From positions 53,130-117,129 of the IMG/VR virus record IMGVR_UViG_3300032268_001483: a stretch of 64,000 bases of DNA. The stretch is one strand, 5' to 3'. Positions 3,411-56,745 of this stretch are shown here, one piece after another. Source of the DNA: a virus. Numbering within the stretch: position 1 is the first letter of the stretch; each line of letters starts with the position of its first letter. The notes beneath the pieces are model-generated. The model was not told the DNA's origin, did not search any database, and saw only the letters and a list, made by a program, of their open reading frames with translations. Position numbers and translations under genes: made by a program.

Positions 3411-3787
3411 ACATTATTTTTTTTGTTTATATAAATCGAATATAACATATTTTTTTCTTCACTAAAATCAAAAGGATTCACAATTTTTTTTAAATAACCC
3501 CAAGTATTTATCTCTATATAATACCCAAATCTTTTAATTCTCTCAATTACTAATGTTAATTCCTTTTCAAATAAAGTCATATCTATATTGGTATTTGTTA
3601 TTCTAATAACAGTAATAATCCCAGTATCATATAAGGATATATTTATATGACCATTTTTATCTAATTCTGAATCTAAACTGAAATTAAAATCATCAGAAAG
3701 AAAAACAAAGGTATCCTCTATTTGCAACCTATCATCTTCTGTCAAAGATTCATTTATTCTGTAATATTCCAAATATTTCATTTTCAT
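3407..3787 (-). CDS. Tagged hypothetical protein, paralogue of 1355-1846
   Basis: The protein has 126 aa and starts MKMKYLEYYRINESLTEDD, giving an INE|S candidate cleavage site at residue 13. The body aligns with residues 58-163 of the protein at 1355-1846, including a shared I(K/E)RFGY(Y/E)I block, so the two derive from a duplication. It overlaps 2649-3410 by 4 bases and follows the GIY-YIG endonuclease gene closely. Function unknown. Confidence 0.6.
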   Translation of the reverse strand: MKMKYLEYYRINESLTEDDRLQIEDTFVFLSDDFNFSLDSELDKNGHINISLYDTGIITVIRITNTNIDMTLFEKELTLVIERIKRFGYYIEINTWGYLKKIVNPFDFSEEKNMLYSIYINKKNNV

Positions 3788-3789
3788 TT

Positions 3790-4947
3790 TTATTTATATT
3801 TCCAAATAAATCCATTTGAATGTTTATATTTACCCACACAACACATTTGAATACAACTACCTCTACTTCCTGTTTTTTTAGCAGCCTCTACAATTGAATC
3901 AAATTCCATTATGAAGTTACCATCTAAATCATACTGACAAACAGATTTTAAAGTCTTATTTGAATATTTTTTAGGTGGATTATCACCATAATATCTCCAT
4001 ATATATTTACCTGCAGATTTGTATTTTCCTCTACAACACTCACCTATATTACCATGATTTATACCAGTAACTTCCGAAGCCCCAAACATTGAATCAAAAT
4101 CTCTAATCCAATTACCATCTAAATCATACTGACTAACCTTTTTAGAATTTTCATCTAACTTATCCAGATTTAAATCAAACCACTCATCCTTATATCTCCA
4201 AATAAATCCACCACAAGTTTTTTGTTTTCCAATACAACAACCAGAAACATAGAGATTCAAATCTTTTTGAATCCTTTCCGCACTCTCCCACTCACCTACT
4301 AAATTACCCACTAAATCATACTGTAAGACTACCTTTTGACCAGTAGCGAGCTGTTTCATCCACTCAGATTTATCTTTCTCTATTCCCCATTCCTTTAAAC
4401 TTCTGAATACTTTTGTCTCACTACAATTTAACTTCTCTGATATCTTTGGCATTGATAAGTTTTCCACAATGTAAAGTTCATATAATAAATCTTTATCAAT
4501 AAATGTTTTTGGTCTATTATTATAGCCAGGTGTTTCTAAATATTTTTCTTTTAACTTTTCAGAAATTTTTTTCTTATGTTCATCAGAAAGTTTTACACCT
4601 CTTTTAGATTCACTCATTCTTTTCTTGGTTTCTTCGGTGTGTGAATATCCATTACCACCTTGTCCACCCTCAGTGAGATTTGTGAGATTACATCCTTCAT
4701 TTCTCAATTTTTCTATCCAATATTTTTCCCAGTATTCCCAATTATCCTCTTCAACAGTATCCAATGTAGATATTATGGGTCGCTTTTCATTTTTTAATAG
4801 TGATTTGATCCATGATATTTTATGTGACTTTCTACCTGAATAACACTCTTTTATGTGGGAATATAATCTCTGTTTCAAATATTGTTTTGTCTTACCCACA
4901 TATCTTATTTCACCAGATTCATCTGATAGTGCATAAATAATTACCAT
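3790..4947 (-). CDS. GIY-YIG homing endonuclease with NUMOD repeats
   Basis: The 385-aa protein has the layout of a free-standing phage homing endonuclease. An N-terminal GIY-YIG nuclease domain (residues 1-95) carries IIYALSDESGEIRYVGKT, in which IYA replaces GIY and YVG replaces YIG. Next comes a NUMOD3 DNA-binding segment (HTEETKKRMSESKRG, SDEHKKKISEK, about 100-130) and a helix-turn-helix-like stretch (about 155-185). Three NUMOD1-like repeats follow, each beginning QYDL(V/D)GN and ending in a G-(F/Y)-IWRY(K) motif. A perfect TTTAATATATA sits 22 bases upstream on its strand. It probably spreads itself by cutting a cognate allele lacking the gene. Confidence 0.88.
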   Translation of the reverse strand: MVIIYALSDESGEIRYVGKTKQYLKQRLYSHIKECYSGRKSHKISWIKSLLKNEKRPIISTLDTVEEDNWEYWEKYWIEKLRNEGCNLTNLTEGGQGGNGYSHTEETKKRMSESKRGVKLSDEHKKKISEKLKEKYLETPGYNNRPKTFIDKDLLYELYIVENLSMPKISEKLNCSETKVFRSLKEWGIEKDKSEWMKQLATGQKVVLQYDLVGNLVGEWESAERIQKDLNLYVSGCCIGKQKTCGGFIWRYKDEWFDLNLDKLDENSKKVSQYDLDGNWIRDFDSMFGASEVTGINHGNIGECCRGKYKSAGKYIWRYYGDNPPKKYSNKTLKSVCQYDLDGNFIMEFDSIVEAAKKTGSRGSCIQMCCVGKYKHSNGFIWKYK

Positions 4948-4969
4948 AATATAATATAATATTTTTATT

Positions 4970-4980
4970 TATATATTAAA
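4970..4980 (-). promoter_or_regulatory. Phage promoter-like 11-mer TTTAATATATA
   Basis: This is a perfect copy of the window's recurrent 11-mer, read on the minus strand and placed 22 bases before the GIY-YIG endonuclease start at 4947. Twelve perfect copies occur, each just upstream of a gene in the matching orientation, so it is probably the -10 element of a phage gene class. Confidence 0.6.
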
Positions 4981-4989
4981 TATGGTAAC

Positions 4990-5748
4990 CTATCTTTTTA
5001 TCATTACAAAAAACGACGAAGTCGACATCGCTTTTATATCCTCTTCTACCTTCCCCATTTCTTCTTTCCCATCTGACACCAAATCAGCACTATTGTAGGT
5101 AATTCCACCGGGAAGTGTAAAATTAAATTGACCTAATAATCTACCTTGTTGCATCTTAGCCCACCCAGTACAATATCTCAGAAAATAATGATCAGCCATT
5201 AAAGTCTCCAAAGGAATATTGACATAAGCTTCTAATATTAAGTGGTGTTCTACATTTGTTAAAATATTCAATCTATGAGTTAATTGATTGAAGTGAAATT
5301 TAGTAGTATATAAATTCAATTGATTCAACATATCCGCCATTGAGTCAATCTGTGTTTTGTAAATACCCAACTCACCGATAGTTGTTATATAGGATGAAAG
5401 ATATGGTTGATTTGTAACTCCCAGATTTACAGACAAGTTAGGAACATTGATGCCCAGCTGTAAAAGATTTTGATTGCTTAATTTGTAAATCCAAGTTACC
5501 GATTGAATTTCACAAGGTAACTCTATATACTTATAGTTGACGTATTCAGCAGTCGAAAAAGCTGTTTTGTCAATGAAATAATACATTTTACCTACTGCAT
5601 ATTGGTAGTTTTGCCAAAACCATTTTGCGGCTCTTGTTTCTACGAATTGTCTGATTGAATGATCTGGTAGATTTTTTGGAAGAGCTCCCCCAACCGTAAC
5701 ATCGGTTTGAACTAAATCTATAAATTCTTCGATAGTAATTTGACTCAT
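4990..5748 (-). CDS. Putative neck protein (T4 gp14-like)
   Basis: The 252-aa protein resembles T4-type neck/tail-completion proteins in its C-terminal third: a helix FLRYCTGWAKMQQGRLLGQF, then LPGGITYNSADLVSDG and a helical acidic EEMGKVEEDIKAMS. T4-like gp14 homologues show the same order (aromatic/Arg helix, L-P-G-G-x-x-x-N, Glu-rich helix). It would join the portal/neck to the tail sheath terminator. It lies alone on the minus strand behind a perfect TTTAATATATA, divergent from the endonuclease at 5822. The assignment rests on pattern, so another head-tail connector is possible. Confidence 0.5.
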   Translation of the reverse strand: MSQITIEEFIDLVQTDVTVGGALPKNLPDHSIRQFVETRAAKWFWQNYQYAVGKMYYFIDKTAFSTAEYVNYKYIELPCEIQSVTWIYKLSNQNLLQLGINVPNLSVNLGVTNQPYLSSYITTIGELGIYKTQIDSMADMLNQLNLYTTKFHFNQLTHRLNILTNVEHHLILEAYVNIPLETLMADHYFLRYCTGWAKMQQGRLLGQFNFTLPGGITYNSADLVSDGKEEMGKVEEDIKAMSTSSFFVMIKR

Positions 5749-5768
5749 AAAATATTTTTAATTTATAG

Positions 5769-5779
5769 TATATATTAAA
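5769..5779 (-). promoter_or_regulatory. Phage promoter-like 11-mer TTTAATATATA
   Basis: Perfect motif copy on the minus strand, 20 bases upstream of the neck-like gene start at 5748. Confidence 0.6.
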
Positions 5780-5821
5780 AAATTAAAGTAACATAAACTC
5801 CAATTTTAGATATATAGTAGT

Positions 5822-7630
5822 ATGAATACGATACTTCAAGATATAACTAACAGAACTTCCAATATAGGGTCACTTGTACTCCTGGTAAAAAATAATTCTG
5901 AATACTTAGATTTTATTAATCATAATGTTCCAGAATCTATTTTAGATAGACAGCTATCTGAAAAAATTTATTATTTAGTTAATAATATAAACACACCTCA
6001 GTTATGTAGATGTGGAAAACATCTATCTTTTATTGGCTTTAAAAATGGTTATAGAAAGAGTTGTGGTGATAGGGAATGTTATGTGAGTTCAAGAAAAGAA
6101 ACTTGTATTGAAAAGTTTGGTGTAGATAATCCAAAAAAATCTAAAGAAATTTTGGAGAAAGAAAAAGAGAACATTCGTAAAAAATGGAATGGTGAACATT
6201 TCATGCTGAATAAAGACATAAAAGATAAGTTTAAGAAAACAATGATTGATAACTGGGGAGTTGAATGGGCTCAACAAAACAAATCTATTAAAGATAAATC
6301 CCTAGAAACTTGGAATAATAATCCAGAAAAGGTGAGTGTAATAGAATCGAGAAAAAATAAATTATTGAAAAAATCCGATGAGGAGAAAAGTATCATAGAA
6401 AATAAAAAAAGAGCAAAGATAATTGATAAATTCAGTACCTATGAAAACTTCATAAATTTCAGAAAAGAAAAGATTGAAGAGGCTTCTATAGAAAAGTATG
6501 GAACTCAACACCATCTTTCTTCTCCAGAAGTAATTAAATTGAGAATTGATAAATATAAAGAAAAAATCACCCAAAAGATTTTAGAGAAATTACCCAATAC
6601 TTTAACTTATTTAGATAGGTTTCATAATAAGAATCTTACTGACCACTACATTAAATTGCATTGTCAAAATTGTGATAGTGAATTTTCTATAACAAGACAA
6701 TTATTAGTAAATCGAATTAACTCCGGAATAGAAGTGTGTTTGAATTGTAATCCAATATTAGTTGGTAAGTCTAAAGGAGAAGAAGAAGTATTTGAATTTA
6801 TATCATCAATTTATAGTGGACAAATTTTACAGAGATATAGAATTGATGGAAAAGAAATTGACATTTACTTACCGGATTTGAAAATAGGATTTGAATATAA
6901 TGGACTATTTTGGCATTCTAACTTACACAAAAGCTCACAATTTCATTTAGAAAAAACAAAATTTTTTGAGGAAGTTGGAATTAAATTAATTCATATTTGG
7001 GAAGATGATTGGTTATATAAAAGGGAAATTATAAAATCAATAATATCAAATAAGATAGGTGCTACTAAAAATAAAATCTTTGCAAGAAAATGTCAGGTAA
7101 GAGAAGTTGATAATAGTCAAGTTCGTAGTTTCTTGGAAAGTAATCACATACAGAGCTTTGTGGGCTCACGAGTTAAACTTGGACTTTTTTATAAAGATGA
7201 ATTAGTTAGCATAATGACTTTCGGTAGTCTTAGAAAATCTTTAGGTTATAACAATGTCGAAGGCAATTGGGAATTGTTGAGATTTTGTAATAAATTAGAT
7301 TGTTCTGTAGTCGGTGGTGCCTCTAAATTATTCAATTATTTCTTGAAAGTATGGAAGCCAAGTCAAGTCATAAGTTTTTGTGATTATAGTAGATCAGATG
7401 GGAATATCTATAAAACTTTAGGATTCGAGTTACAACATCTTTCAACTCCTAACTATTACTACATCGTAGATAGTGTTAGAAGACATAGATTCAATTATAG
7501 AAAGGACAAATTAGTTACTAATGGATCTGATTCTAATCTAACAGAATCACAAATTATGCAAAATTTAGGTATAAATAAAATTTATGACTGTGGTATGCAG
7601 AAATGGATTTTTATCCGAATTGAAAGTTAG
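5822..7630 (+). CDS. Free-standing homing endonuclease, Vsr/EDxHD-like (copy 1)
   Basis: This 602-aa protein starts with a small Cys-containing region (CRCGKHLSF, about 60), continues with several loosely repeated segments of the type KFGVDNPKKSKEI and WGVEWAQQNKSIKDK, then a Zn-like pair CQNC/CLNC (about 280-305). The nuclease domain around 345-400 reads EIDIYLPDLKIGFEYNGLFW, then H-S and IWEDDW, a PD-(D/E)XK/Vsr-like core. The C-terminal 200 residues (FGSLRKSLG, WELLRFCNK, FNYRKDKLV) are shared with the protein at 12037-13851. ATG is preceded by TAGATATATAGTAGT, so the leader is very short. It is probably a mobile nuclease inserted next to the neck gene. Confidence 0.8.
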   Translation: MNTILQDITNRTSNIGSLVLLVKNNSEYLDFINHNVPESILDRQLSEKIYYLVNNINTPQLCRCGKHLSFIGFKNGYRKSCGDRECYVSSRKETCIEKFGVDNPKKSKEILEKEKENIRKKWNGEHFMLNKDIKDKFKKTMIDNWGVEWAQQNKSIKDKSLETWNNNPEKVSVIESRKNKLLKKSDEEKSIIENKKRAKIIDKFSTYENFINFRKEKIEEASIEKYGTQHHLSSPEVIKLRIDKYKEKITQKILEKLPNTLTYLDRFHNKNLTDHYIKLHCQNCDSEFSITRQLLVNRINSGIEVCLNCNPILVGKSKGEEEVFEFISSIYSGQILQRYRIDGKEIDIYLPDLKIGFEYNGLFWHSNLHKSSQFHLEKTKFFEEVGIKLIHIWEDDWLYKREIIKSIISNKIGATKNKIFARKCQVREVDNSQVRSFLESNHIQSFVGSRVKLGLFYKDELVSIMTFGSLRKSLGYNNVEGNWELLRFCNKLDCSVVGGASKLFNYFLKVWKPSQVISFCDYSRSDGNIYKTLGFELQHLSTPNYYYIVDSVRRHRFNYRKDKLVTNGSDSNLTESQIMQNLGINKIYDCGMQKWIFIRIES

Positions 7631-9117
7631 CCAAACTACAAATCTTACCTTTTACAAGTCCTTTTTCACAACAAGTTCTAACTAGTTGAATTGAGGCTAC
7701 AACTAAAAGTGTATATTTCAAAATAGTTAAAACTGGGCCGATTTGTGTTTCTAAAATTGCTACCAAACTTGCACCTATAATTGGAGCAACTACTTTAGCA
7801 AATCCGCTAAAAATAGACTTTAATTTTTGATTTTTATTTATCGATACTTCACCAGCCTGTTCAATCGATTCCTGTGCTTGTTGAGTAGGATCACCCTCAT
7901 CTTCTGCCTCTCCCGAAATAATTTCATCTACTTTAGGCAAAACTTTACCAAATGCTTTATATTTATATGCTTTATCTAATCCCCTTCTAGCAACTCCTGA
8001 TATTAGATATAGAGCGCCATTTGTTCCATACTTCAAAGCCTTCAAAACAAGATAGTCTATAGGTCTAATAATTAATTTAAAACATTCTAAAACCCAACCC
8101 ATTACACCCATTCTACCTTTAACTGCCTTTTCTTCACCACCCTTTTCACCAGATGATTTTGAAACTATATCACCTTTCTCTTTGTAGAATTCATTTTCTT
8201 CTTTATCTTTAAAATAGAATTTATCACCTTCTATCTTTGTTATTTCTTTTTCTATTTCTTCTCCAGTTTTAGATTTATATTTTACTTTATCACCAACATT
8301 ATATTCTTGAGCTTCTTGTACCTCATTTATTATCATATCAACATCACTCAGATTACCACCTTCAACTAAAAAACCTTTGAGTGAATAGTAAACTCTTTCG
8401 AAATTAAATTTACTATAAAGATTGAATGAGTCCTTAACTAAATCTTCAATTTTATCTAAATCATCAACTGCATCATATTCTGATGCCTCCTCTTCTAATT
8501 TCTTTTTTACTTCATCAGAGGTGTTACCTATCTCACCTTTTGAAAATCTACTTTTGATACCGTTCAAGTCTGATACAACTTCACCTGTTTCAGTTGAGAA
8601 AGTTTCATCTAAAATAATTTCAGATAAGGCTTCTACTGATGGATTTTTTTGATTTTCTATTATCCATCCACCTACACTTTTAACTAATGTGATCCCGGCA
8701 GTTTTTGTGATTTCCCAAAGAGCTATAAATACTTGACTTATTTTTTTAAAGATATTTGATATGGTATCTTTTATATTTTTTAAAAATTCAGTAAAACTAT
8801 TATAAGCTTTTCCAACAATATTAATACCGCCTTCCCAAGCATTTTTTGTTGCGTTCCATATTTTACCAAAAATATTTTCTTCTTCTAAAATTGAACTATC
8901 ACTATTTAAAAAACTTCCATAAATTTCTTTAATGATAATTTTATCTAATTTTTTAAAATTTATATTTTTTTTTGAATTGTGTCACGTCAATTCTTTCTGA
9001 TATAAGACAACTTTCAAAAATTGATTTATTCGATTCTCTACCTATATTATAAAAATAGTATAGATTATCAACCTTTCTACTTTGACTAAAACTTGAATAA
9101 TTTTTTATATATCTCAC
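7611..9117 (-). CDS. Tagged internal-protein gene with a +1 frameshift in an A9 run
   Basis: Two overlapping reading frames seem to form one gene. Frame 1 starts with GTG at 9117 inside a GTGA overlap with the paaA stop. It encodes [20 protein letters not shown] and continues to a stop just after nine consecutive A residues (8965-8973 on the plus strand). Frame 2 is open from 8981 to 7611 and contains no ATG, GTG or TTG before a TTG at 8567, although the upstream part ([17 protein letters not shown] and following) is clearly protein-like. Removing one A joins them into about 500 aa. The C-terminus has hydrophobic segments (about 40 residues before the end) and Lys/Glu-rich middle parts. The tag, candidate site IFE|S and operon position suggest a virion-internal, possibly membrane-active protein. 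The extra A may be a sequencing error, slippage or programmed +1 shifting. Confidence 0.6.
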
Positions 9118-10051: not shown

Positions 10052-10777
10052 TTAAATCTTCTTTAATTGAACTACAACTTGATTATCACCACCAGTGAGT
10101 TCACATCTAAATCCACCTTGTGTCACTCTTGTTGCCCACTGAATTAGATCAGCATCTCTGGTAGCATCTAATTGATTATTAAAAGATCTCCTAATTTTTT
10201 GATTAAGTGCATAATCGTTTCCATACAATCCACCACCTTTTACAGGTGTTCTTATTTCTAACCAATTAGAACGTTTTAGATTTACTTTTTTGTAATTATA
10301 TTTTGTTTTCAAAATTATTTCTAATTCTTTCAGAAAATTTTCTATTTGTTCTTTTACATCAAATTCAGAACTTTCTACAAGTCCACCAACTATGTAAAAT
10401 TTTATTTCTAAATCTTCCCAACTTGGTTTAACTCGGAAGTTTGGAGACTCACCGCTTCGATGATAAAATTGTTCGATTTCTGATAAAATTTTGGAAAGTA
10501 CTTTAATATCGGTCAAACATCTACCACCACCACTATGAGGCTGGATACCATCAGCTACACCTTTTAAATTAATTGTAATTTCTTTACATTTTTTTGTATC
10601 TTTTTTTACATTAGCAACATCAGTAAAAAATCTATTATCAGAAGAAACAAATCCTTCTACAAGTCTAAATTGTTTATTGTCAACGTAGTCGATAAATAGA
10701 TCTTCTATATCTTCGTTATCTAATTTGAAACTTTCAAATAGACTTTCAAAGTTGTTAAATTTTTTTAATTTTTTCAT
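10052..10777 (-). CDS. Tagged hypothetical protein upstream of paaA
   Basis: This 241-aa protein starts [20 protein letters not shown], with an LFE|S candidate cleavage site near residue 16. A Gly-rich middle ([12 protein letters not shown]) and late Arg-rich part ([20 protein letters not shown]) resemble a nucleotidyl- or phosphotransferase-like fold, but no catalytic signature is clear. It overlaps 10774-10956 by 4 bases and is followed 2 bases later by paaA, so all three are one operon. Virion packaging is inferred from the tag. Confidence 0.6.
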
Positions 10778-10956
10778 GACTTATATTTTCCTCCTCTTTT
10801 TTTCCTTTTACAATATTGCCTTTGAGAAAAGCCTAAATTAGGGTTACTACAATTTATTGATTTTTTGTATTTTACAGACCATCTTTTTTTACCACCCGCT
10901 CTTGGCTTATTGTAACTTTCGAATAAAAATTCTTCAAAATTTAATATTTTTTCCAT
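10774..10956 (-). CDS. Tagged small basic Cys-containing protein
   Basis: This is a 60-aa protein: the tag MEKILNFEEFLFESY (LFE|S) followed by a strongly basic mini-domain with RWSVKYKKSINCSNPNLGFS and [16 protein letters not shown]. The C-N-P-x-GFSQ-x-x-YC arrangement recurs in small proteins of phages and large viruses. After cleavage the product would be about 45 residues and very basic, suitable for binding packaged DNA. It overlaps the next gene by 4 bases. Confidence 0.65.
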   Translation of the reverse strand: MEKILNFEEFLFESYNKPRAGGKKRWSVKYKKSINCSNPNLGFSQRQYCKRKKRGGKYKS

Positions 10957-47000: not shown

Positions 47001-49822
47001 ATACTTGTAAAATTATTATATGACCAAATTCCAACCGAACTTGTACTATTATATGTCACATAAATATCACCGTTTAGTTCTGAAAACTCAATACTATTGG
47101 CTGTTCCAGTTAGTAACATTTGGTGCACAACTCTGTTTATTATTGGATCTACAACATTAATTTTTGATGATGACAGACAATATAAATAATTATTATAGGT
47201 ATTATATTTCATCATTATTTGTGTACCTGTGACTGATCCTGTTAGTGATATTGTTTGTACTAAATTTGCATTCTCTGCGTCATAGACACTGAGGTTATTA
47301 CCCAGAACATATATCCCACTAGATATCTGTAGATAAACTATATCTATTAAATCTGTATTATTTGGTACGTTATAATTCGTTGTGGTGTAAATATTCGGTG
47401 AGAAACTATACAAACTAAATGATTGTGTGAATTGTTGTAAATTGAAGTTACCACCACCTGAATATGTTGCTACGACTGGTGGTAAACAACCCGTTGCCCC
47501 AAATCCTGAATTAAAAGCAACTGATACATATGGTGACACATCACAGAATGGATCTGTGGTACCCCAAAATGGACCCTGATAACTCAAAACTAAATCTGTT
47601 GGTCCTAAGTATAAAATATTATATTCTTGATTATCATATGGATAAATTGTATTATTAATTGTCACAATTTGTCCGGTAGCAAATGGTTGAGATTCGAAAG
47701 AAAAGGTTGTTGTATCGGGTAATATTATAGAATTTGATGTCATTAATGCACCAAATCTCCCCTTTATTTTATTTTTTATTTTATAATATTCTGAACCTGG
47801 TAGATTAGCCTTACCCACTCTAATATCATATTCTAATCTCTGTGTTTGCTTCTTTATCCTAAATATAAGGCTGGCATTAATATTTTCTACATAAATACCA
47901 TAATCGTCTAATTCACCTGAATAGTTATCAACCCATTCTGATAAGGCCGTAATAATATCCGGTATTCCTGATGTGACTACAACACTTTGTCCGTAACTTC
48001 TACCGTTAATATTTATCTCTAAATAATTACTCATATCGTAAAAGATAACATCTGAATGTTCAATATAAAAATCAGCAGTAGAACCTACCCTTACGTCGAA
48101 TTGCAAAGGAACATTTGGATATTCAGTTTTTAATTTGATTGAATTATCATAAATTGGATTAGAACCACCTACATACTGTAAACTAGCAAATATACCCAAT
48201 GTTGCCAATTCGGCATAGTGGGCTACTAACCAATTTTTAAGAGTTCTGTCGATTGTTCTATCCATATCAACATTAATTCCGACATAAATAAAGTCAATTT
48301 GCTCATTATATTCTTGACCACCAATTCTTATTTTTATACCGAACTCATCCAAATCCGTAAATACTATATTATAAAGGAAGTTTTCGCAAATATCTTGATT
48401 TACCTCTGGTGATAAAATTTCCTCTACACCAACATTTTGTTCATAAATCTGACTCCTACTCGTATAATCAATTAAAGAGTTAGATTGTGTAAACAGAAAA
48501 TATTTAACTTGAGCATACTCTTCCGGGTATAACAAATCAGCATGTAGTGAGAAATTCTCATAATATAAATCGACATTGAAAACACTAAAATCATTTTTAT
48601 ATCTTTCTGCTGCCGAAGCTAATGTAGTAACACTACTAGCTGTATAATTAAATGTATAATAAAATTTATTAGTTGTTAACCTTACCTCAGTAGAAAAAAA
48701 AGTTTCTGTCACCACTGCCGTAGTTAATGGTAAATAGGTTGCTTTAATCCAATAAGAATTATCATTCGGGTCTATAGATGAAGTTGCTGACCAGGTATAT
48801 GCCTGAATACATTCGTAGACTAAGTTGTTAAATATTGTAAGTGACTGTAGTGGATAATATTGTAAATTGGAATTACCTATAAATTGAGATATCGAGTCGA
48901 CTACTAAGAAATTAGTATTTTGTGTTGAAAGTGGTAAGACAAATTGGATACCAGGCTTAAGAGAGTTTGGAGCTTCTCCACCTGTAAATTTGATTATACT
49001 ACCTGATAAATCCAACCCACCGACATAAACTATTGGTACATCTGTCTTTAGAGTTAACTCAATTAATAAGTTTTGACTTTGAGTTAAATTCAGAGTAGAA
49101 ATTTCATACTTATAATATACTTTATCGAATAACTGAACATTATCAACTGTATAAACACCATCATTTTTTTCTGTATTTATTACAGTAATCTTTTTACCAA
49201 TAAAGTATTTCGAATAAAAATCTGGCTCGCTCCAAGACGATAAATTATCTCTTAATTGACTATCTATATAATTATATACACCAATAGAATTCAATCCACT
49301 AATTGTTGTATTTACATAAGAAGAAGTTAATGAACTTGGTAACCCAAATTGACTATCGAAATCTTCATTACTTAAATTACTGATTATCAATATTGCATTC
49401 TTTCTAGTTGAAACAACAGTATAGGAACGATTTGGATTACTGAATTCAAAAATCGGACTATCAAATAAAATTTCGGTACCTATTGGGAATTTTTTTTCGA
49501 AATCAAACCCATAAATCCACTTTGAATAAAAGTTTGGATCTGTATTTGATGGTTGAATAGAACTGACTGATTCATTGGTATAAGTATTACCTGAATATCT
49601 GAACCTATACTCATTGAAGAGTTGAAATTTTTCAAGTTGAAGTACACCTGGTGCTTCAAACTCAAATGAAGGTATCTTTTCAAAAGTGTAAATCCCGATT
49701 GTTTTGAAGGTATCATCACTATTTTCATGAAATATTAAACTACCTTCCCATCTTTCCTGGTCTGGTCTCCATCTGAAATTTAGATTATCTCCTTCTTTAT
49801 TAAAGAATAACAAAGATTGCAT
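44081..49822 (-). CDS. Giant baseplate-like structural protein with beta-propeller insert
   Basis: This 1913-aa protein is the largest in the window. Much of it is Ser/Thr/Asn-rich beta structure. Residues about 815-1115 look like a YVTN/NHL-type beta-propeller, with repeated blades (SGIYVLGNNLSVYDAENANL, NNYLYCLSSSKINVVDP, NDVYITQADDYLIRIDSNS). Around 1480-1530 a helix RKELMMVRHDIFPYVGSYKA and NAINFFGYNDLELYEYYRNI resembles a baseplate wedge element (gp7-like) in phages of Bacteroidetes. Near the C-terminus two small W/Y motifs (WNPFTTYQIGDKVTYFEKLY, SSEVDYTLGELVNYDRLIYQ) resemble CBM5/12-type carbohydrate-binding modules. It is behind a perfect promoter motif. Baseplate wedge with host-binding modules is the best guess. 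Confidence 0.55.
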   Translation of the reverse strand: MQSLLFFNKEGDNLNFRWRPDQERWEGSLIFHENSDDTFKTIGIYTFEKIPSFEFEAPGVLQLEKFQLFNEYRFRYSGNTYTNESVSSIQPSNTDPNFYSKWIYGFDFEKKFPIGTEILFDSPIFEFSNPNRSYTVVSTRKNAILIISNLSNEDFDSQFGLPSSLTSSYVNTTISGLNSIGVYNYIDSQLRDNLSSWSEPDFYSKYFIGKKITVINTEKNDGVYTVDNVQLFDKVYYKYEISTLNLTQSQNLLIELTLKTDVPIVYVGGLDLSGSIIKFTGGEAPNSLKPGIQFVLPLSTQNTNFLVVDSISQFIGNSNLQYYPLQSLTIFNNLVYECIQAYTWSATSSIDPNDNSYWIKATYLPLTTAVVTETFFSTEVRLTTNKFYYTFNYTASSVTTLASAAERYKNDFSVFNVDLYYENFSLHADLLYPEEYAQVKYFLFTQSNSLIDYTSRSQIYEQNVGVEEILSPEVNQDICENFLYNIVFTDLDEFGIKIRIGGQEYNEQIDFIYVGINVDMDRTIDRTLKNWLVAHYAELATLGIFASLQYVGGSNPIYDNSIKLKTEYPNVPLQFDVRVGSTADFYIEHSDVIFYDMSNYLEININGRSYGQSVVVTSGIPDIITALSEWVDNYSGELDDYGIYVENINASLIFRIKKQTQRLEYDIRVGKANLPGSEYYKIKNKIKGRFGALMTSNSIILPDTTTFSFESQPFATGQIVTINNTIYPYDNQEYNILYLGPTDLVLSYQGPFWGTTDPFCDVSPYVSVAFNSGFGATGCLPPVVATYSGGGNFNLQQFTQSFSLYSFSPNIYTTTNYNVPNNTDLIDIVYLQISSGIYVLGNNLSVYDAENANLVQTISLTGSVTGTQIMMKYNTYNNYLYCLSSSKINVVDPIINRVVHQMLLTGTANSIEFSELNGDIYVTYNSTSSVGIWSYNNFTSIPTVSVNTTGNTLNMVYNKSENDVYITQADDYLIRIDSNSRAVVASYSVSGLYSEIFYEPINSSVYYFGATGLNNINNGNISSILGVGTSSFNNLIFNHIGGNLILSQFTSYSKISDTNILDFTSVIPEYGKLSINGWDGDVYLPSLNSPKFVVIDSTTGIVKSSKTVNSIITKLIFDPERNTMFGIQPNTNTLIEISVELGTSVVLNTQTYSILDQNQFGTLSPDYVPYTDIWLKTRQYLRKPRENYNNEPYVKYVWKWETDQYPEMFLFDFSGDQLPITGSYAYTGPKPLTTISLNKTPNKDIGKVSLPEFQQTIFSEVVTTLSHVDDENDLSVVPQPLQAFLGYNSQDEGFMSSALLFVKREEINFTINSNSSNSDILTFKFVESGGKFYGTISFDINSTSTFTNDNQGNPRGLKVGQIIKVFITDITNSKNKYISVNNGKQFRIREIRTRTLTVDFGDFLYEESTKINDYPKISQTTYLSVRFKVMDKTIGRFVISGQTEIEDIRYKIELNNVGQNIDPEDVYIFKPYDINEQGIDWTYLNKKRKELMMVRHDIFPYVGSYKAIINAINFFGYNDLELYEYYRNINLSSPDLGKLFKVEVPDIFDNTVEGWKENDFIRGTFPNANFENTNLFNLTYKITDKEGNNVLLYSLGEVIIKLEGLKYWLERKVIPITHQILDITGRADFVGNTDIVHRNYDTKILNIRQSMTPIDFNLTEAYLMPVNSGSTVYTCHIDFSNNKSTEVPDYFTINIRTYKTYMEWNPFTTYQIGDKVTYFEKLYISVISNNRIRNPRKYDNILGWSSEVDYTLGELVNYDRLIYQYIGTMSSFMVSGTNSNTLNPLLDINQNMSFASWTDMTEWKVFDLEPVQYLSEYRTATHSYNFTVDTNIDPFIVIEVTSDNGYGQIYTVKKNYEIRGLNDLFTGYEGDPIVPFSPIVQVSSPFVPRPTILTPTIGSTSPNLPNIGNLSGL

Positions 49823-49917: not shown

Positions 49918-50499
49918 ATGAAATATCTTCAGCAATTTAATAACTTCACACCAATCAGTGAAAATCTAAAATATCATTTAGACAATAACCTTTCAATTTT
50001 AGAAAATGTTTTTAGACCCTATTCCGATTCTTTCTATAATTTATTAACAGAAGCAAGAAACCTATTCGATAACGGATTTGATAACTTCCCAGATTTAGAT
50101 AAAAACCTTTTTGAGAATACAGATTTTGGTAAATTTGCTCAATTCGAAGGTAAAATTGTTCCATTAGATTTACCAATTGAAAATATAGATTCTATATTGG
50201 AAGCAGAACATGCCGGAAAGAAAGTCAAACTAAACAAACCAATGAGAAGTAGTGGACCTAAAAAATATAAAGTCTATGTTAAAAATCCAAAAACAGATAA
50301 GGTTAAAGTTGTACATTTTGGTGATATTAAAGGAGGATTAACATCTAAGATGAATGATAAGGAAGCTAGAAAATCTTTTGTAGCACGTCATAAATGTGAT
50401 ATGAAAAAAGATAGAACTAAGGCTGGATATTGGTCTTGTAATTTACCTAGATACGCAAAGTATTTAGGATTAGCTGGTGGTGGTAATTTCTACTGGTAA
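49918..50499 (+). CDS. Tagged protein with DUF5754-like basic C-terminal domain
   Basis: The 193-aa protein starts MKYLQQFNNFTPISENLKYH (ISE|N). The C-terminal 95 residues form a conserved small basic domain: KKYKVYVKNPKTDKVKVVHF, GLTSKMNDKEARKSFVARHK, CDMKK, then GYWSCNLPRYAKYLGL. This domain recurs in phages and large DNA viruses (DUF5754 as I recall it), with unknown function; Cys, His and basic residues suggest nucleic-acid binding. It opens a five-gene same-strand island of mostly tagged proteins. Confidence 0.7.
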   Translation: MKYLQQFNNFTPISENLKYHLDNNLSILENVFRPYSDSFYNLLTEARNLFDNGFDNFPDLDKNLFENTDFGKFAQFEGKIVPLDLPIENIDSILEAEHAGKKVKLNKPMRSSGPKKYKVYVKNPKTDKVKVVHFGDIKGGLTSKMNDKEARKSFVARHKCDMKKDRTKAGYWSCNLPRYAKYLGLAGGGNFYW

Positions 50500-50515: not shown

Positions 50516-50929
50516 ATGAATTACCTTAAAACGTTTGAAAATTTCCAAGACGATATAATTAAAAGTACTGCTAACCAATTAGTAGAAACACTACATTGTG
50601 ATAGATTTGGTGCTTGTGTCCATTTTGCTGAAGAATTTGTCCTAAAAATCCATCAAATAAATCCAGAATTACTAAATCAATTTTTTGTAACAGAGAGGTT
50701 TGTTAATTGGTCTCACGGTGATGGAATTCCGCAACAACATACTTGGATTGAACTTCTAAATGGTGAAAAAATAGATCCTACCTATATCCAATTCACTAAG
50801 TATGGTACTGCGAGTTATTCAAGAAAGATTAAAAATAAATTCACTGGACTAGAATATTATAATGATACAATTGGTGGTACTTGGTTTTCAGATAGAAGAA
50901 AAAAATTTCCAGAAATGATTTACAAATGA
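50516..50929 (+). CDS. Tagged protein with a Cys-His-Asp hydrolase-like core (start moved)
   Basis: An upstream Met at 50477 would overlap the previous gene by 23 bases; the Met at 50516 gives MNYLKTFENFQDDIIKSTAN, the common tag, so I use it (137 aa). The core has C34 (FGACVHFAEEF), H75 (QQHTWIEL) and D87 (GEKIDPTYIQF) in the order and context of transglutaminase-like or papain-like thiol hydrolases. The substrate is unknown. The start codon of the next gene overlaps its stop by 4 bases. Confidence 0.6.
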   Translation: MNYLKTFENFQDDIIKSTANQLVETLHCDRFGACVHFAEEFVLKIHQINPELLNQFFVTERFVNWSHGDGIPQQHTWIELLNGEKIDPTYIQFTKYGTASYSRKIKNKFTGLEYYNDTIGGTWFSDRRKKFPEMIYK

Positions 50930-51510
50930 GATATATAAAACCTTTTAAAATATTCGAGTCTAGTACAAGTGAAAGATTATATCACGGTAATAGAAAAGGA
51001 GATTTTCCTCCAGAAAAGAGAAGATTTGCCGGTGCAATTTTTCTTACAAGTAATTTAGAATTTGCTAAAAACTTTGCAGGTTTTGACGAAAGAGAAGAAT
51101 TTCCAAACGGGTCGGTATGGGAAATACTTCTAAAGCCTAACTTAAGACTTTGTGATCCTATGAGTCAAGACACAATAAATAAATTAGATTTAATTTCTAC
51201 TTTACAAAAAATGATAGCTAGTAATTATGTAGATCCTACTAATGGAACAAAATTTTCAACTGTTCAAGTGGGATTAAGTGGATATAATCCAGAAACTAAT
51301 GAAAACTTCGAATTAAAGACACCAGATGAATCCGTATATCATTATTTGTGGAGAATTAAAAATGGTGCTTGGAGGATTATTGAATGTCAACCTATAATTG
51401 AACAAATAAAGTCAAATGGATATGATGGTTTCTATGTAATAGAGAGGGGTTCTAAAAATGTTGCAATTTTTAACGAGAATTCTATACAAAAATTTGAAAA
51501 AATTCTATGA
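50926..51510 (+). CDS. Tagged ADP-ribosyltransferase-like protein
   Basis: This 194-aa protein carries the tag MRYIKPFKIFESSTSERLYH (IFE|S). It continues with features of the ADP-ribosyltransferase fold: YHGNRKG (about 20-26), an S-T-S-like GAIFLTSNLEFAKNFAG (about 36-52), and a C-terminal YDGFYVIERGSKNVAIFNEN, comparable to the last strands of ART domains. A clear catalytic Glu is not certain. T4 Alt is a capsid-packaged ADP-ribosyltransferase with the same kind of cleaved leader, making this assignment attractive. It overlaps both neighbours by 4 bases. Confidence 0.55.
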   Translation: MRYIKPFKIFESSTSERLYHGNRKGDFPPEKRRFAGAIFLTSNLEFAKNFAGFDEREEFPNGSVWEILLKPNLRLCDPMSQDTINKLDLISTLQKMIASNYVDPTNGTKFSTVQVGLSGYNPETNENFELKTPDESVYHYLWRIKNGAWRIIECQPIIEQIKSNGYDGFYVIERGSKNVAIFNENSIQKFEKIL

Positions 51511-51773
51511 TATTTCCATTCAAAGAGACTAAATTAGAGGATAATATTTTTATCAGAGAATTCAATCAACAAACCGACTCTTCAGAGATGGTTTGGCATA
51601 GAGATAACGAAGATAGAATAATAGAGTCTTTAGAAGAAACAGATTGGATGTTTCAATTAGATAATAAATTGCCACAAAAAATTAGTGGTGAAATATTTAT
51701 ACCAAAAGAAGTATATCATAGGTTAATTAAAGGGACTGGTGATTTGAAAATAAAATTAATTAAATTAGTATGA
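51507..51773 (+). CDS. Untagged small protein in the tagged island
   Basis: The 88-aa protein overlaps both neighbours by 4 bases, so it is translationally coupled in the island. It lacks the tag (it begins MIFPFKETKLEDNIFIREFN). The sequence HRDNEDRIIESLEETDWMFQ, LDNKLPQKISGEIFIPKEVY suggests a small beta-barrel cupin-like or acidic DNA mimic shape. Function unknown; possibly an immunity-like or chaperone partner of its neighbour. Confidence 0.5.
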   Translation: MIFPFKETKLEDNIFIREFNQQTDSSEMVWHRDNEDRIIESLEETDWMFQLDNKLPQKISGEIFIPKEVYHRLIKGTGDLKIKLIKLV

Positions 51774-52180
51774 AGTACATAAAATTATTTGAAAATTTTT
51801 TTAGTAAAATTGATTTCGGAAATCAATTATGGGTAGAGGCTGATTGGTACAGTTGGGATGATTTAATATGGAATGAACAATCAGAAGAACTGGAACAACA
51901 TGAAATTACTCAAATTTTGGATAAGTTCAAATCAGATAAAGACTTCAGAATTAAAGAATACAGAGTCGTAAAAAGAATACATAGAGATGACTTTAATTCT
52001 TGCCTTAGTATTGATAATGGGAATCATCCAACAGCAACAGTATTGATTTTTAAGTTTAGAGATGATATGTGGTTGATAGAAATATTTGATTTTAAAACTC
52101 AAGACGATGCAAAATTTGCTTGTGATGGCACCGATGGATTATTATTATGGCTTGAAGAATGGGTGAAAAAATTAAGATAA
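51770..52180 (+). CDS. Tagged hypothetical protein
   Basis: This 136-aa protein has one of the clearest tags, MKYIKLFENFFSKIDFGNQL (LFE|N). The body is an alpha/beta protein with no recognised motif (EADWYSWDDLIWNEQSEELE). It overlaps 51507-51773 by 4 bases. Its first 27 bases nearly match those of 53942-54316, showing recent spread of the leader or strong constraint. Confidence 0.6.
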   Translation: MKYIKLFENFFSKIDFGNQLWVEADWYSWDDLIWNEQSEELEQHEITQILDKFKSDKDFRIKEYRVVKRIHRDDFNSCLSIDNGNHPTATVLIFKFRDDMWLIEIFDFKTQDDAKFACDGTDGLLLWLEEWVKKLR

Positions 52181-52184
52181 TTAA

Positions 52185-52195
52185 TTTAATATATA
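52185..52195 (+). promoter_or_regulatory. Phage promoter-like 11-mer TTTAATATATA
   Basis: Perfect motif copy 26 bases before ATG at 52222, separating two co-oriented groups of tagged genes. Confidence 0.6.
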
Positions 52196-52221
52196 GATAA
52201 TAAATTTTAATCATTTACTAT

Positions 52222-52446
52222 ATGGATTTAATGACATTTGAAAGCTTCCACTTTAATTTTGATTCTTATCAAGAATACATTATCGTGGAAAAAAACATAC
52301 CAACTAACTCCGAATTATGGAGTGCTTGTAAATCTTGGGCTAAATCAAAATACGATGTTTGGCCTTCTGCTTATGCTTGTGGAGCTGCAGCAAAAAGATA
52401 TAAAAGTAAAGGCGGTAAATGGAAAAAGAAAAAAAAATCTAAATAA
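52222..52446 (+). CDS. Tagged small basic protein with W-S-A-C module
   Basis: The 74-aa protein has a leader MDLMTFESFHFNFDSYQEYI followed by IIVEK, then a compact basic module SELWSACKSWAKSKYDVWPS and AYACGAAAKRYKSKGGKWKK. The module recurs in small proteins of phages and large viruses. The C-terminus is almost pure Lys. The leader is a variant of the tag with possible sites at TFE|S or IVE|K. It is 2 bases upstream of another tagged gene. Confidence 0.6.
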   Translation: MDLMTFESFHFNFDSYQEYIIVEKNIPTNSELWSACKSWAKSKYDVWPSAYACGAAAKRYKSKGGKWKKKKKSK

Positions 52447-52448
52447 CT

Positions 52449-52754
52449 ATGGAACGTTTACTCAACTTCGAGGAATTTCTTTTAGAAGAAAAAAAGGCTT
52501 ATGCTGATACCAAAGGTGGTTTAGATAAATGGTTTAAAGAAAAATGGGTTGATATATCCAAAACTAATGCTGACGGGTCACATCCACCCTGTGGTAGAGA
52601 TGATGCGAGTAAAGGTAGTTACCCAAAATGTAGAAAAGTTAGAGTGGCTGCAAAAATGACTAAAAAAGAAAAGAAAGCTTCTGTTCAAAGAAAAAGAAAG
52701 GCTGAAGATAAGGGTTCGAAAGGTAGTGGTAGAAAGCCAAATTATGCAAAATAA
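52449..52754 (+). CDS. Tagged protein with DUF5872-like basic domain
   Basis: This 101-aa protein has the leader MERLLNFEEFLLEEKKAYAD (LLE|E), very close to the T4 pattern. The domain KGGLDKWFKEKWVDISKTNA, HPPCGRDDASKGSYPKCRKV, AAKMTKKEKKASVQRKRKAE matches the small basic family known in phages and large DNA viruses (DUF5872 as I recall). Two Cys residues may bind metal. It ends at a terminator shared with the convergent gp47-like gene. Confidence 0.7.
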   Translation: MERLLNFEEFLLEEKKAYADTKGGLDKWFKEKWVDISKTNADGSHPPCGRDDASKGSYPKCRKVRVAAKMTKKEKKASVQRKRKAEDKGSKGSGRKPNYAK

Positions 52755-54763: not shown

Positions 54764-55978
54764 ATGTACAATGAAAAATTAATATCCACAATCAAAAGAT
54801 CTTCAAAACAAGATCGCTTTGTGGGACACGACTATTATTTGATGGACGAACTCCTTACAGATGAACAAAGGATGGCTCGCGATGCCGTTCGAGACTGGGT
54901 TAAACAAGAAGTATCACCAATCATCGAAGATTGCTATGAAAGAGCTATTTATCCTAAAAATCTAATTGTGGGATTAGCAGAATTAGGAGCATTCGGTCCT
55001 AGTCTTCCCCAAAAGTATGGATGTGCTGGTACTGATGAAACAACTTATGGATTAATGATGCAAGAATTAGAAAGAGGGGATTCCGGAATTCGTTCTGCAG
55101 CTTCTGTACAAGGTTCCCTTGTTATGTATCCAATCTATAAATATGGCACCGAAGAACAAAGGGAAAAATATTTGCCAAAACTCGCTAAAGGAGAATTTAT
55201 TGGATGTTTTGGACTCACAGAACCTAACCATGGTTCAGATCCAAGTTCTATGCTTACTAACATAAAATCTGATGGTGATGATTATATTTTAAATGGTTCA
55301 AAAATGTGGATTACTAATTCACCTATCGCAGATGTTGCAGTTGTATGGGCTAAAGATGAAAATGGGGATATACGAGGGATAATAGTTGATATGGATCTGG
55401 AGGGTGTATCAGCCCCCGAAATTACCGGAAAACTTTCTTTGAGAGCTTCTATTACTGGGGAATTAGTCTTTGAAAACGTTAGAGTTTCAAAAAAACAGAT
55501 ACTTAATGTAACTGGATTGAAGGGTCCACTTTCCTGTTTAACAAAGGCTCGTTATGGGATTGCTTGGGGAGCAATTGGTGCTGCAATGGATTGCTATGAC
55601 TCTGCACTGAGATATTCATTAGAACGTGAACAATTTGGAAAACCACTAGCTGGATTTCAATTAACTCAGAAAAAACTAGCAGAAATGATTACTGAAATTA
55701 CTAAGGCTCAACTACTAACCTGGAGATTAGGCAAATTGATGGATGATGGAAAAGTCACACCTGCCCAAGTTTCTATGGCAAAACGTAATAATGTTCATAT
55801 GGCACTTACAATTGCCAGAGAATCTAGACAAATTCTTGGTGGCATGGGTATTACAAATGAATATCCTATCATGAGACATATGATGAATTTAGAAACAGTC
55901 TTGACATATGAGGGTACACACGATATACATTTATTGATAACTGGAATGGATGTTACCGGAATTAATGCTTTTAAATGA
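54764..55978 (+). CDS. Acyl-CoA dehydrogenase, glutaryl-CoA dehydrogenase type
   Basis: The 404-aa flavoenzyme matches the glutaryl-CoA dehydrogenase branch, which oxidises and decarboxylates glutaryl-CoA to crotonyl-CoA, passing electrons to ETF. Diagnostic blocks include ERGDSGIRSAASVQ, GCFGLTEPNHGSDPSSM (FAD and substrate binding), GLKGPLSCLTKARYGIAWGA and the active-site TYEGTHDIH with catalytic Glu at 383. It appears full length and intact. It has its own TATATATAA-type leader and is flanked by phage genes on both sides. With paaA it forms a pair of CoA-thioester catabolic genes. Exact substrate needs assay; another acyl-CoA is possible. Confidence 0.9.
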   Translation: MYNEKLISTIKRSSKQDRFVGHDYYLMDELLTDEQRMARDAVRDWVKQEVSPIIEDCYERAIYPKNLIVGLAELGAFGPSLPQKYGCAGTDETTYGLMMQELERGDSGIRSAASVQGSLVMYPIYKYGTEEQREKYLPKLAKGEFIGCFGLTEPNHGSDPSSMLTNIKSDGDDYILNGSKMWITNSPIADVAVVWAKDENGDIRGIIVDMDLEGVSAPEITGKLSLRASITGELVFENVRVSKKQILNVTGLKGPLSCLTKARYGIAWGAIGAAMDCYDSALRYSLEREQFGKPLAGFQLTQKKLAEMITEITKAQLLTWRLGKLMDDGKVTPAQVSMAKRNNVHMALTIARESRQILGGMGITNEYPIMRHMMNLETVLTYEGTHDIHLLITGMDVTGINAFK

Positions 55979-56112: not shown

Positions 56113-56745
56113 ATGCCTTTACCACATTTTACCCAACTTCAAATGACTGGATCACCGGGTGGACCTGGAACCACTCCACAAGAACCTGTTTATACAAACC
56201 TGTTTGAGATTTCATTCATTCTACCTGTAATTTTACAAGCTCAGCAAAGAGACCCAATTATGATGCTTCAACAAGCAAAAAAGGTAACTGTTGACTTGAT
56301 GAAAGATATTGGAATGGCAACACAACGTTTCAAATACTCAACAAGAGCATTTATGACTACACCAGAATCAACACACGTTGATTTTACAGTCGATTTCAAT
56401 GTAAATGTGGACCAAAGGGGTAGTGTGACTGTTTGGAATACTTTGAGAGCTTGGTACGACTTAGTTTGGAATTCACAAAATGGTTCACTATTCTATAAAT
56501 CGGATATCATTGGGACAATTATCGTGAATCAACACGATAAAAAGGGTGTTGTACTAAGAAGAGTAAGATTTATTAACTGCCAAATTAAAAGTATTACCGG
56601 AACTGACCTTGATTGGGGAACAGCTGGGATTCAAGACACTGTTACAGCAGCCTTTGTTGCTGATTACTGGACAGATGAATATATTGATGGTGGTTTAGCT
56701 ATATCACCTCCATTCGTAGATGGATATGCACCTGGTGGTGGATAA
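56113..56745 (+). CDS. Tail tube protein (T4 gp19-like)
   Basis: The 210-aa protein resembles the contractile-tail tube protein. It has NLFEISFILPVIL near the start (tube-fold first strand), an inner segment STHVDFTVDFNVNVDQRGSV, and a C-terminal LDWGTAGIQDTVTAAFVADY followed by WTDEYI, which parallels the T4 gp19 ending LDW...TFEVTLALDYWE. It would form the inner tail tube beside the sheath. It is a single gene between the dehydrogenase and a terminator. Confidence 0.72.
   Translation: MPLPHFTQLQMTGSPGGPGTTPQEPVYTNLFEISFILPVILQAQQRDPIMMLQQAKKVTVDLMKDIGMATQRFKYSTRAFMTTPESTHVDFTVDFNVNVDQRGSVTVWNTLRAWYDLVWNSQNGSLFYKSDIIGTIIVNQHDKKGVVLRRVRFINCQIKSITGTDLDWGTAGIQDTVTAAFVADYWTDEYIDGGLAISPPFVDGYAPGGG

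What the first reader, a model, noticed from the sequence alone, without database searches (positions are those of the whole stretch)
50926..51510. Possible packaged ADP-ribosyltransferase, parallel to T4 Alt
The protein combines the targeting-like leader (IFE|S) with an ART-like pattern: YHGNRKG, FLTSNLEFAKNFA, YDGFYVIERGSKN. T4 Alt is injected and modifies RNA polymerase at once. A comparable effector in a Bacteroidetes phage would be new.
Basis: inference. Interest (0 to 1): 0.62.

Follow-up and report, generated by a model that had tools for sequence, protein, structure and literature searches.

The report
Tagged ADP-ribosyltransferase-fold protein of giant phages
A small protein of T4-like giant phages, probably infecting Bacteroidota, has the fold of enzymes that use NAD+ to tag other molecules and starts with what looks like a ticket into the phage head, so it is probably injected with the DNA, but part of the usual catalytic centre is missing and nothing has been tested at the bench.

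Summary
In detail: 50926-51510 (+) is a real 194-aa gene with about 33 IMG/VR relatives, under strong purifying selection. None was found in INPHARED, Pfam, PHROGs or NCBIfam at threshold. The predicted fold is an ADP-ribosyltransferase (ART): ART-PolyVal-type viral proteins (E 2e-7), a cyanophage pre-ejectosome chain (9e-5), AcrIF11 and RES/MbcT. Profile-profile comparison with a cyanophage ejection-protein ART aligns full length (E 4e-6). It is not an Alt relative. It belongs near the H-Y-D/E clade, with His20 invariant, Phe replacing Tyr, and the strand-5 acid replaced by Lys in 21 of 22 members, so enzyme activity is uncertain. Residues 1-11 (MRYIKPFKIFE|S) match a T4-type capsid-targeting propeptide. 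All 20 leader-bearing aligned relatives have [I/L]-F-E|[S/N]. Similar leaders start about 20 proteins of this record, 12 times the expectation. Relatives encode a gp21-like prohead protease, T4-like portal and gp23-like capsid protein. An auxiliary gene points to Bacteroidota (Saprospirales) hosts. Packaged phage ARTs are a known theme, so this is a new variant of a known kind. An RNA-polymerase target is pure analogy. Packaging, NAD+ use and target are inferred.

The parts
50926..51510 (+). ART-fold protein, 194 aa
   Evidence: ORF; about 33 viral relatives; AlphaFold2 model pLDDT 84, pTM 0.78; Foldseek to ART folds; hhalign to a cyanophage ART
50926..50958 (+). Leader, residues 1-11 (MRYIKPFKIFE), predicted T4-type capsid-targeting propeptide; predicted cut after Glu11
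   Evidence: P3 = I/L, P2 = F, P1 = E, P1' = S/N in 20 of 20 leader-bearing aligned relatives; disordered in the model (residues 1-14); leader statistics
50977..51012 (+). Strand-1 motif LYHGNRKGDFPP (residues 18-29), invariant His20
   Evidence: Conservation; aligned with the FHG of cyanophage ARTs and YHG of the RPP1 ART-PolyVal domain
51037..51078 (+). Strand-2 motif IFLTSNLEFAKNFA (residues 38-51), invariant Phe39 at the usual Tyr position
   Evidence: Alignments; column counts
51427..51489 (+). Strand 4-5 hairpin and what follows (residues 168-188): invariant E173, N178, E184; K177 aligned with the strand-5 acid of H-Y-D ARTs
   Evidence: alignment, column counts (K177: K 21, E 1)
49918..50499 (+). 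Upstream gene (193 aa, leader MKYLQQFNNF; C-terminal phrog_7595), found near the ART in 14 of 21 relative loci
50516..50929 (+). Leader-bearing 137-aa neighbour (MNYLKTFENF...), found beside the ART only here and in the 100%-identical locus L002
51507..51773 (+). Downstream 88-aa gene, no leader, near the ART in 16 of 21 relative loci
51770..52754 (+). Three further leader-bearing small genes (51770-52180, 52222-52446, 52449-52754); the last two resemble DUF5872 below its cut-off
56113..56745 (+). Tail-tube-like gene close to the ART here and in relatives (late-gene context)
   Evidence: phrog_45 tail tube E 4e-7; neighbours

Best explanation
The gene encodes a small, single-domain ART-fold effector of T4-like large phages, probably of Bacteroidota. 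Inferred course: residues 1-11 carry it into the prohead core, the gp21-like prohead protease cuts after Glu11, the roughly 183-residue ART domain stays in the virion and enters the host with the DNA. There it uses NAD+ through an ART pocket (His20, Phe39, with E173, N178 or E184 in place of the canonical strand-5 acid) to modify, or otherwise act on, a host component at the start of infection. Shown: gene, family, purifying selection, fold resemblance, leader enrichment, protease and T4-like head genes in relatives. Inferred: packaging, cleavage, injection, NAD+ use, target.
For: Fold: BFVD hits are led by ART-PolyVal or polyvalent phage proteins (30 hits at E <= 1e-3, best 2.2e-7). The top PDB hit is a cyanophage A4 pre-ejectosome chain (9.1e-5), then AcrIF11, RES-Xre and MbcT. 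The L033 model again ranks MbcT and AcrIF11 first, though not significantly. The family profile aligns full length with the ART domain of Pf-WMP3-type ejection proteins (Prob 87, E 3.6e-6). Pfam ART-PolyVal matches the relative L016 over residues 12-185 (E 0.0016, below cut-off). Packaging: conserved [I/L]FE|[S/N] leader; similar leaders on about 20 mostly orphan proteins of the record and on none of 8 recognised intracellular enzymes or factors scanned; [LI]xE[SNDGA] peaks at residues 6-15 (17 against 5.4 expected; relatives 42 against 12.6); gp21-type protease in 12 of 20 records and T4 portal in 11 of 20, plus head maturation protease and major head protein; in L019 the ART follows the head-tail adaptor gene. 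Selection: dN/dS 0.07-0.16. Context: NADAR ADP-ribose-processing domain in 9 of 17 records. Precedent: PMC5512222, PMC9503650.
Against: The strand-5 acid is Lys in 21 of 22 members and Phe replaces Tyr, so catalysis may be altered or absent. Structural TM-scores are modest (about 0.35-0.55) and the Pfam match is sub-threshold. G000 itself holds no identified protease or portal (it is probably a fragment). No proteomics. The leader is absent or replaced by another N-terminus in L017-L020.
Confidence: 0.55

Rival explanations
1. Packaged ART-fold protein that does not transfer ADP-ribose to a macromolecule: an NAD+ hydrolase or phosphorylase of RES/MbcT type, or a non-catalytic binder of NAD+/ADP-ribose that blocks host NAD+-based defence.
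For: Strand-5 acid lost (K177) while the rest of the pocket is invariant; RES-Xre and MbcT among the best PDB folds. From general knowledge, RES enzymes consume NAD+ without a classical strand-5 Glu.
Against: Closest profile match is to an ART domain in cyanophage ejection proteins, where the acid also varies (D, R, K). The strand-1 motif is HG as in H-Y ARTs, not the Arg of RES (general knowledge).
Confidence: 0.25
2. Anti-defence ART made inside the cell, like AcrIF11, not packaged; the shared N-terminal decapeptide has another role.
For: AcrIF11 is a top fold match (6kyf) and works as a small solo phage ART (PMC12421852). In L017-L020 the typical leader is missing.
Against: The leader ends in a prohead-protease-like site in 20 of 20 leader-bearing homologues; similar leaders recur on many orphan proteins and on none of the intracellular enzymes scanned; gp21-type protease in relatives.
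Confidence: 0.13
3. Not an ART: a different small alpha+beta protein whose model resembles ARTs by chance.
For: Modest TM-scores; no above-threshold family match; the best PDB sequence match is a stray glucanotransferase.
Against: Fold search, profile-profile comparison and a sub-threshold Pfam match agree on ART, with the motifs in register.
Confidence: 0.05

Closest known systems
ART domain of cyanophage ejection proteins (Pf-WMP3_26; cyanophage A4 pre-ejectosome 9k3a_B)
   Same: Full-length profile alignment of the ART domain; top PDB fold hit; HG and Y/F-L-T motifs; strand-5 acid also variable; the A4 chain is a virion component by its PDB title
   Different: There the domain lies in a roughly 1,000-1,500-aa protein of a podovirus; here it is a solo 194-aa protein with a T4-type leader
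ART-PolyVal (PF18760; Tox-ART-HYD2 clade of polyvalent proteins)
   Same: Fold and motif order; L016 matches PF18760 at E 0.0016
   Different: Below the curated cut-off; Tyr to Phe; strand-5 acid lost; not multidomain
T4 Alt
   Same: ART-fold protein with a short N-terminal propeptide targeting it to a T4-like head (as proposed)
   Different: Alt is R-S-E clade; no match to ADPrib_exo_Tox; no evidence for RNA polymerase as target; much smaller
AcrIF11
   Same: Small phage ART, fold match 6kyf
   Different: Anti-CRISPR acting on Cas8f (Csy1); keeps a strand-5 acidic residue (D115, or D146/E147; PMC12421852); no T4-type leader known
RES toxins / MbcT
   Same: Fold match
   Different: Toxin-antitoxin NAD+-degrading enzymes; no toxin-antitoxin partner found here

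Membership tests
ART superfamily | Split beta-sandwich ART fold | tested here: met
   Model pLDDT 84; ART folds lead PDB and viral libraries
ART superfamily | Strand-1 His or Arg | tested here: met
   H20 in 22 of 22
ART superfamily | NAD+ binding and ADP-ribosyl transfer | not testable with these tools
   Needs assay
ART-PolyVal (H-Y-D) | Pfam PF18760 above gathering score | tested here: not met
   Best member 19.6 bits against cut-off 31.2; G000 none
ART-PolyVal (H-Y-D) | Tyr in strand 2 | tested here: not met
   Phe39 in 22 of 22
ART-PolyVal (H-Y-D) | Asp/Glu in strand 5 | tested here: not met
   K177 in 21, E in 1 (L016); alignment. Register could shift by one residue; N178 is invariant
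T4 Alt family (R-S-E) | R-S-E active site / ADPrib_exo_Tox profile | tested here: not met
   No match in 17 records; motif is HG...FLT
T4 Alt family (R-S-E) | Modifies RNA polymerase | not testable with these tools
   Needs biochemistry
T4-type capsid-targeting sequence | 10-20-residue N-terminal propeptide ending in a Glu cleavage site | tested here: met
   [I/L]FE|[S/N] at residues 9-12 in 20 of 20 leader-bearing relatives; description of T4 CTS in PMC5694885
T4-type capsid-targeting sequence | Shared by otherwise unrelated head-resident proteins | tested here: inconclusive
   Shared by many unrelated orphans; head residence unknown
T4-type capsid-targeting sequence | gp21-like prohead protease encoded | tested here: met
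   12 of 20 records, all relatives, phrog_207; not on the fragment G000
T4-type capsid-targeting sequence | Experimental packaging and cleavage | not testable with these tools
   Needs virion proteomics

The most novel reading that the evidence does not exclude
These large phages carry a T4-type head-targeting tag on about 20 or more mostly orphan proteins per 117 kb, a large set of co-injected effectors, and the ART-fold member has moved to an unusual active site (H-F-N/E without the strand-5 acid), implying an NAD+ chemistry or target not yet described.
Probability: 0.25. Interest if true: 0.68.

Novelty: new variant of a known kind. Interest (0 to 1): 0.45.

Why it matters
If packaged, it would extend injected ART-fold effectors to T4-like phages of Bacteroidota with an H-clade ART distinct from Alt. 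More broadly, the leader gives a sequence rule for listing candidate injected proteins of these phages, and virion proteomics of one isolate could test the whole list at once.

Tried and rejected
Pfam, PHROGs and NCBIfam with the window protein: nothing at threshold. Sequence search of the PDB: stray glucanotransferase match over 66 residues, rejected as chance. Cultured phages: no relative of the window protein and only insignificant matches with L016. Bacterial and archaeal genomes: none. PF18760 on the own record and on G002: no hit, although hmmscan of the L016 protein (from G002) gives E 0.0016, so the genome search is less sensitive here. T4-like late promoters (TATAAATA): 28 against 16 expected, 1 of 100 shuffles reaching it, but none just upstream of this gene cluster, so not used. 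My first impression that the C-terminal extension of L032/L033 is DUF5872-like was not supported by Pfam and is dropped. Searches for more divergent family members found only the same compact family. No paralogue: one copy per record in 17 records.

Full report
What is there. The ORF at 50926-51510 (+) is as described: 194 aa with all quoted motifs. The window is part of a 117,129-base viral record, probably a fragment since it holds no identified portal or protease. Relatives occur in 32 viral contigs in one scan, including records of 430-465 kb; none was found among annotated phages or bacterial and archaeal genomes. Each of 17 records searched has exactly one copy. Nearly all relatives are 57-68% identical to the window protein, and dN/dS is 0.07-0.16, so the protein is doing something selected.

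Fold. The AlphaFold2 model (14-sequence alignment) has mean pLDDT 84; residues 1-14 are disordered and the rest is mostly well ordered. In the viral structure library the best hits are led by ART-PolyVal or polyvalent phage proteins (best E 2.2e-7, 30 at E <= 1e-3). In the PDB the only hit below 1e-3 is a chain of the cyanophage A4 pre-ejectosome (9.1e-5), followed by the anti-CRISPR 6kyf (AcrIF11; PMC12421852), RES-Xre, MbcT and, more weakly, PARPs. A second model, of the longer homologue L033, again ranks MbcT and AcrIF11 first, but not significantly. TM-scores are modest, so I looked for sequence support. Pfam ART-PolyVal matches the L016 homologue over residues 12-185 at E 0.0016, below the curated cut-off. 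A profile of the ART domain of Pf-WMP3-type cyanophage proteins aligns with the family profile over residues 18-189 (Prob 87, E 3.6e-6), with the three motif blocks in register. The first two blocks also align with the ART domain of the Roseovarius phage RPP1 vRNAP, the prototype of the polyvalent ART family (PMC5512222).

Active site. Polyvalent-protein ARTs use His in strand 1, Tyr in strand 2 and Asp in strand 5 (PMC5512222); in AcrIF11, H20/Y46 and D146/E147 are needed (PMC12421852). Here His20 is invariant, Phe39 takes the Tyr position in 22 of 22 sequences, and the position aligned with the strand-5 acid is Lys177 in 21 of 22 (Glu in L016), next to invariant Asn178, with invariant E173 and E184 nearby. 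The alignment could be off by one residue. The cyanophage domains also vary at that place (D, R, K). So the family keeps an ART-like pocket but not the textbook triad. The NAD+ pocket may be intact (inference); whether it transfers ADP-ribose is open.

Leader. Residues 1-11 read MRYIKPFKIFE|S. T4 capsid-targeting sequences are 10-20-residue propeptides, and the T4 protease cuts C-terminal to a Glu (PMC5694885); T-even internal proteins share only that leader (PMC3012670). In the alignment, the 20 leader-bearing homologues have I/L-F-E|S/N; two (L017, L019) have another N-terminus. In the record, [FY]E[SN] within the first 18 residues occurs in 20 of 126 proteins against a mean of 1.6, and [LI]xE[SNDGA] is enriched at residues 6-15 (17 against 5.4; relatives 42 against 12.6). 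Eight leaderless proteins identified by Pfam are intracellular enzymes or factors (IMPDH domain, ribonucleotide reductase, SIS/GATase, RecA, GreA, metallophosphatase, tRNA synthetase, DnaJ), whereas nine of ten leader-bearing proteins scanned have no Pfam match and the tenth is kinase-like. This comparison is small and was selected by eye. One chaperone-like protein (GrpE-like by eye, L037 9209-9682) matches the short regular expression, probably by accident. The group has the machinery: Peptidase_S77 (gp21 type) in 12 of 20 records, T4 portal in 11 of 20, and in L054 a head maturation protease and a major head protein by PHROGs; the latter begins MSHIRIDKQ...HSINE|N and the protease MKPVLIVE|N, compatible with the same cut (sequence reading). 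The own fragment lacks these genes.

Context. The ART overlaps its neighbours and lies in a run of small, mostly leader-bearing genes between a very long ORF and a tail-tube-like gene. The neighbours 49918-50499 and 51507-51773 recur near the ART in 14 and 16 of 21 relative loci. In L019 the ART directly follows a head-tail adaptor gene. In L032/L033 the ART has a C-terminal extension of about 90 residues, basic and partly helical. NADAR, an ADP-ribose-processing domain, is present in 9 of 17 records, including the own one. The host is very probably a member of Bacteroidota: the acyl-CoA dehydrogenase at 54764-55978 is 84% identical to Saprospira grandis, and the listed best matches are Bacteroidota, Saprospirales first. 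This shows the gene's origin and only suggests the host.

Mechanism. Most likely the protein is carried in the head, trimmed, injected and acts early on a host component through NAD+. The RNA polymerase target proposed by analogy to Alt has no support here: Alt belongs to the R-S-E clade (PMC5512222) and no ADPrib_exo_Tox match was found. Rival readings (NAD+ hydrolase/phosphorylase or pseudoenzyme; AcrIF11-like intracellular anti-defence protein) are not excluded.

Novelty. Phage ARTs delivered from the virion are an established theme: PMC9503650 places about 44% of phage ARTs in packaging contexts and notes that over 40% of jumbo phages encode ARTs. What is new here is the family itself (no curated model), its solo form with a T4-type leader in phages of probable Bacteroidota hosts, and the lost strand-5 acid. 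New variant of a known kind.

Noticed in passing
L196 (record behind L019), 486-2363 and 3697-7644, minus strand: Probable inteins: one inside the prohead protease (CHSGDVDILTETGW...CHWTGN|S) and two inside the T4-like portal (ETKIATPDGF...FSHN|T and CLVGDTRVRTIDGY...PVHN|T); the Pfam matches for both host proteins are split accordingly.
   Followed up: partly
window and L035-L037 (whole record): A shared N-terminal decapeptide (MKxIKxFExF type) starts about 20 mostly orphan proteins, including a kinase-like P-loop protein (1847-2602, minus) and a 60-aa very basic protein (10774-10956, minus): candidate internal head proteins.
   Followed up: partly
54764-55978: Acyl-CoA dehydrogenase gene, 84% identical to Saprospira grandis: an unusual auxiliary metabolic gene for a phage.
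   Followed up: partly
L037 8019-8441 (record position 48019-48441): NADAR domain protein (E 1.8e-23), a possible ADP-ribose eraser; NADAR also in 8 other relative records, in L054 and L055 a few kb from the head genes.
   Followed up: partly
L017-L020: Homologues with a different N-terminus, MNLQEQTYKMKKLMGLKELTLEN, perhaps a second leader type.
   Followed up: no
L023 328-657: A 109-aa homologue with an in-frame internal deletion of the middle of the ART domain, motifs at both ends kept; real variant or assembly error unknown.
   Followed up: no
50516-50929: Leader-bearing neighbour with a C...HTW...D pattern (FGACVHFAEE, QQHTWIELLNGEKIDPTY) that looks papain/transglutaminase-like by eye; no Pfam match.
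   Followed up: no
3790-4947 (minus): GIY-YIG/NUMOD homing endonuclease gene.
   Followed up: no
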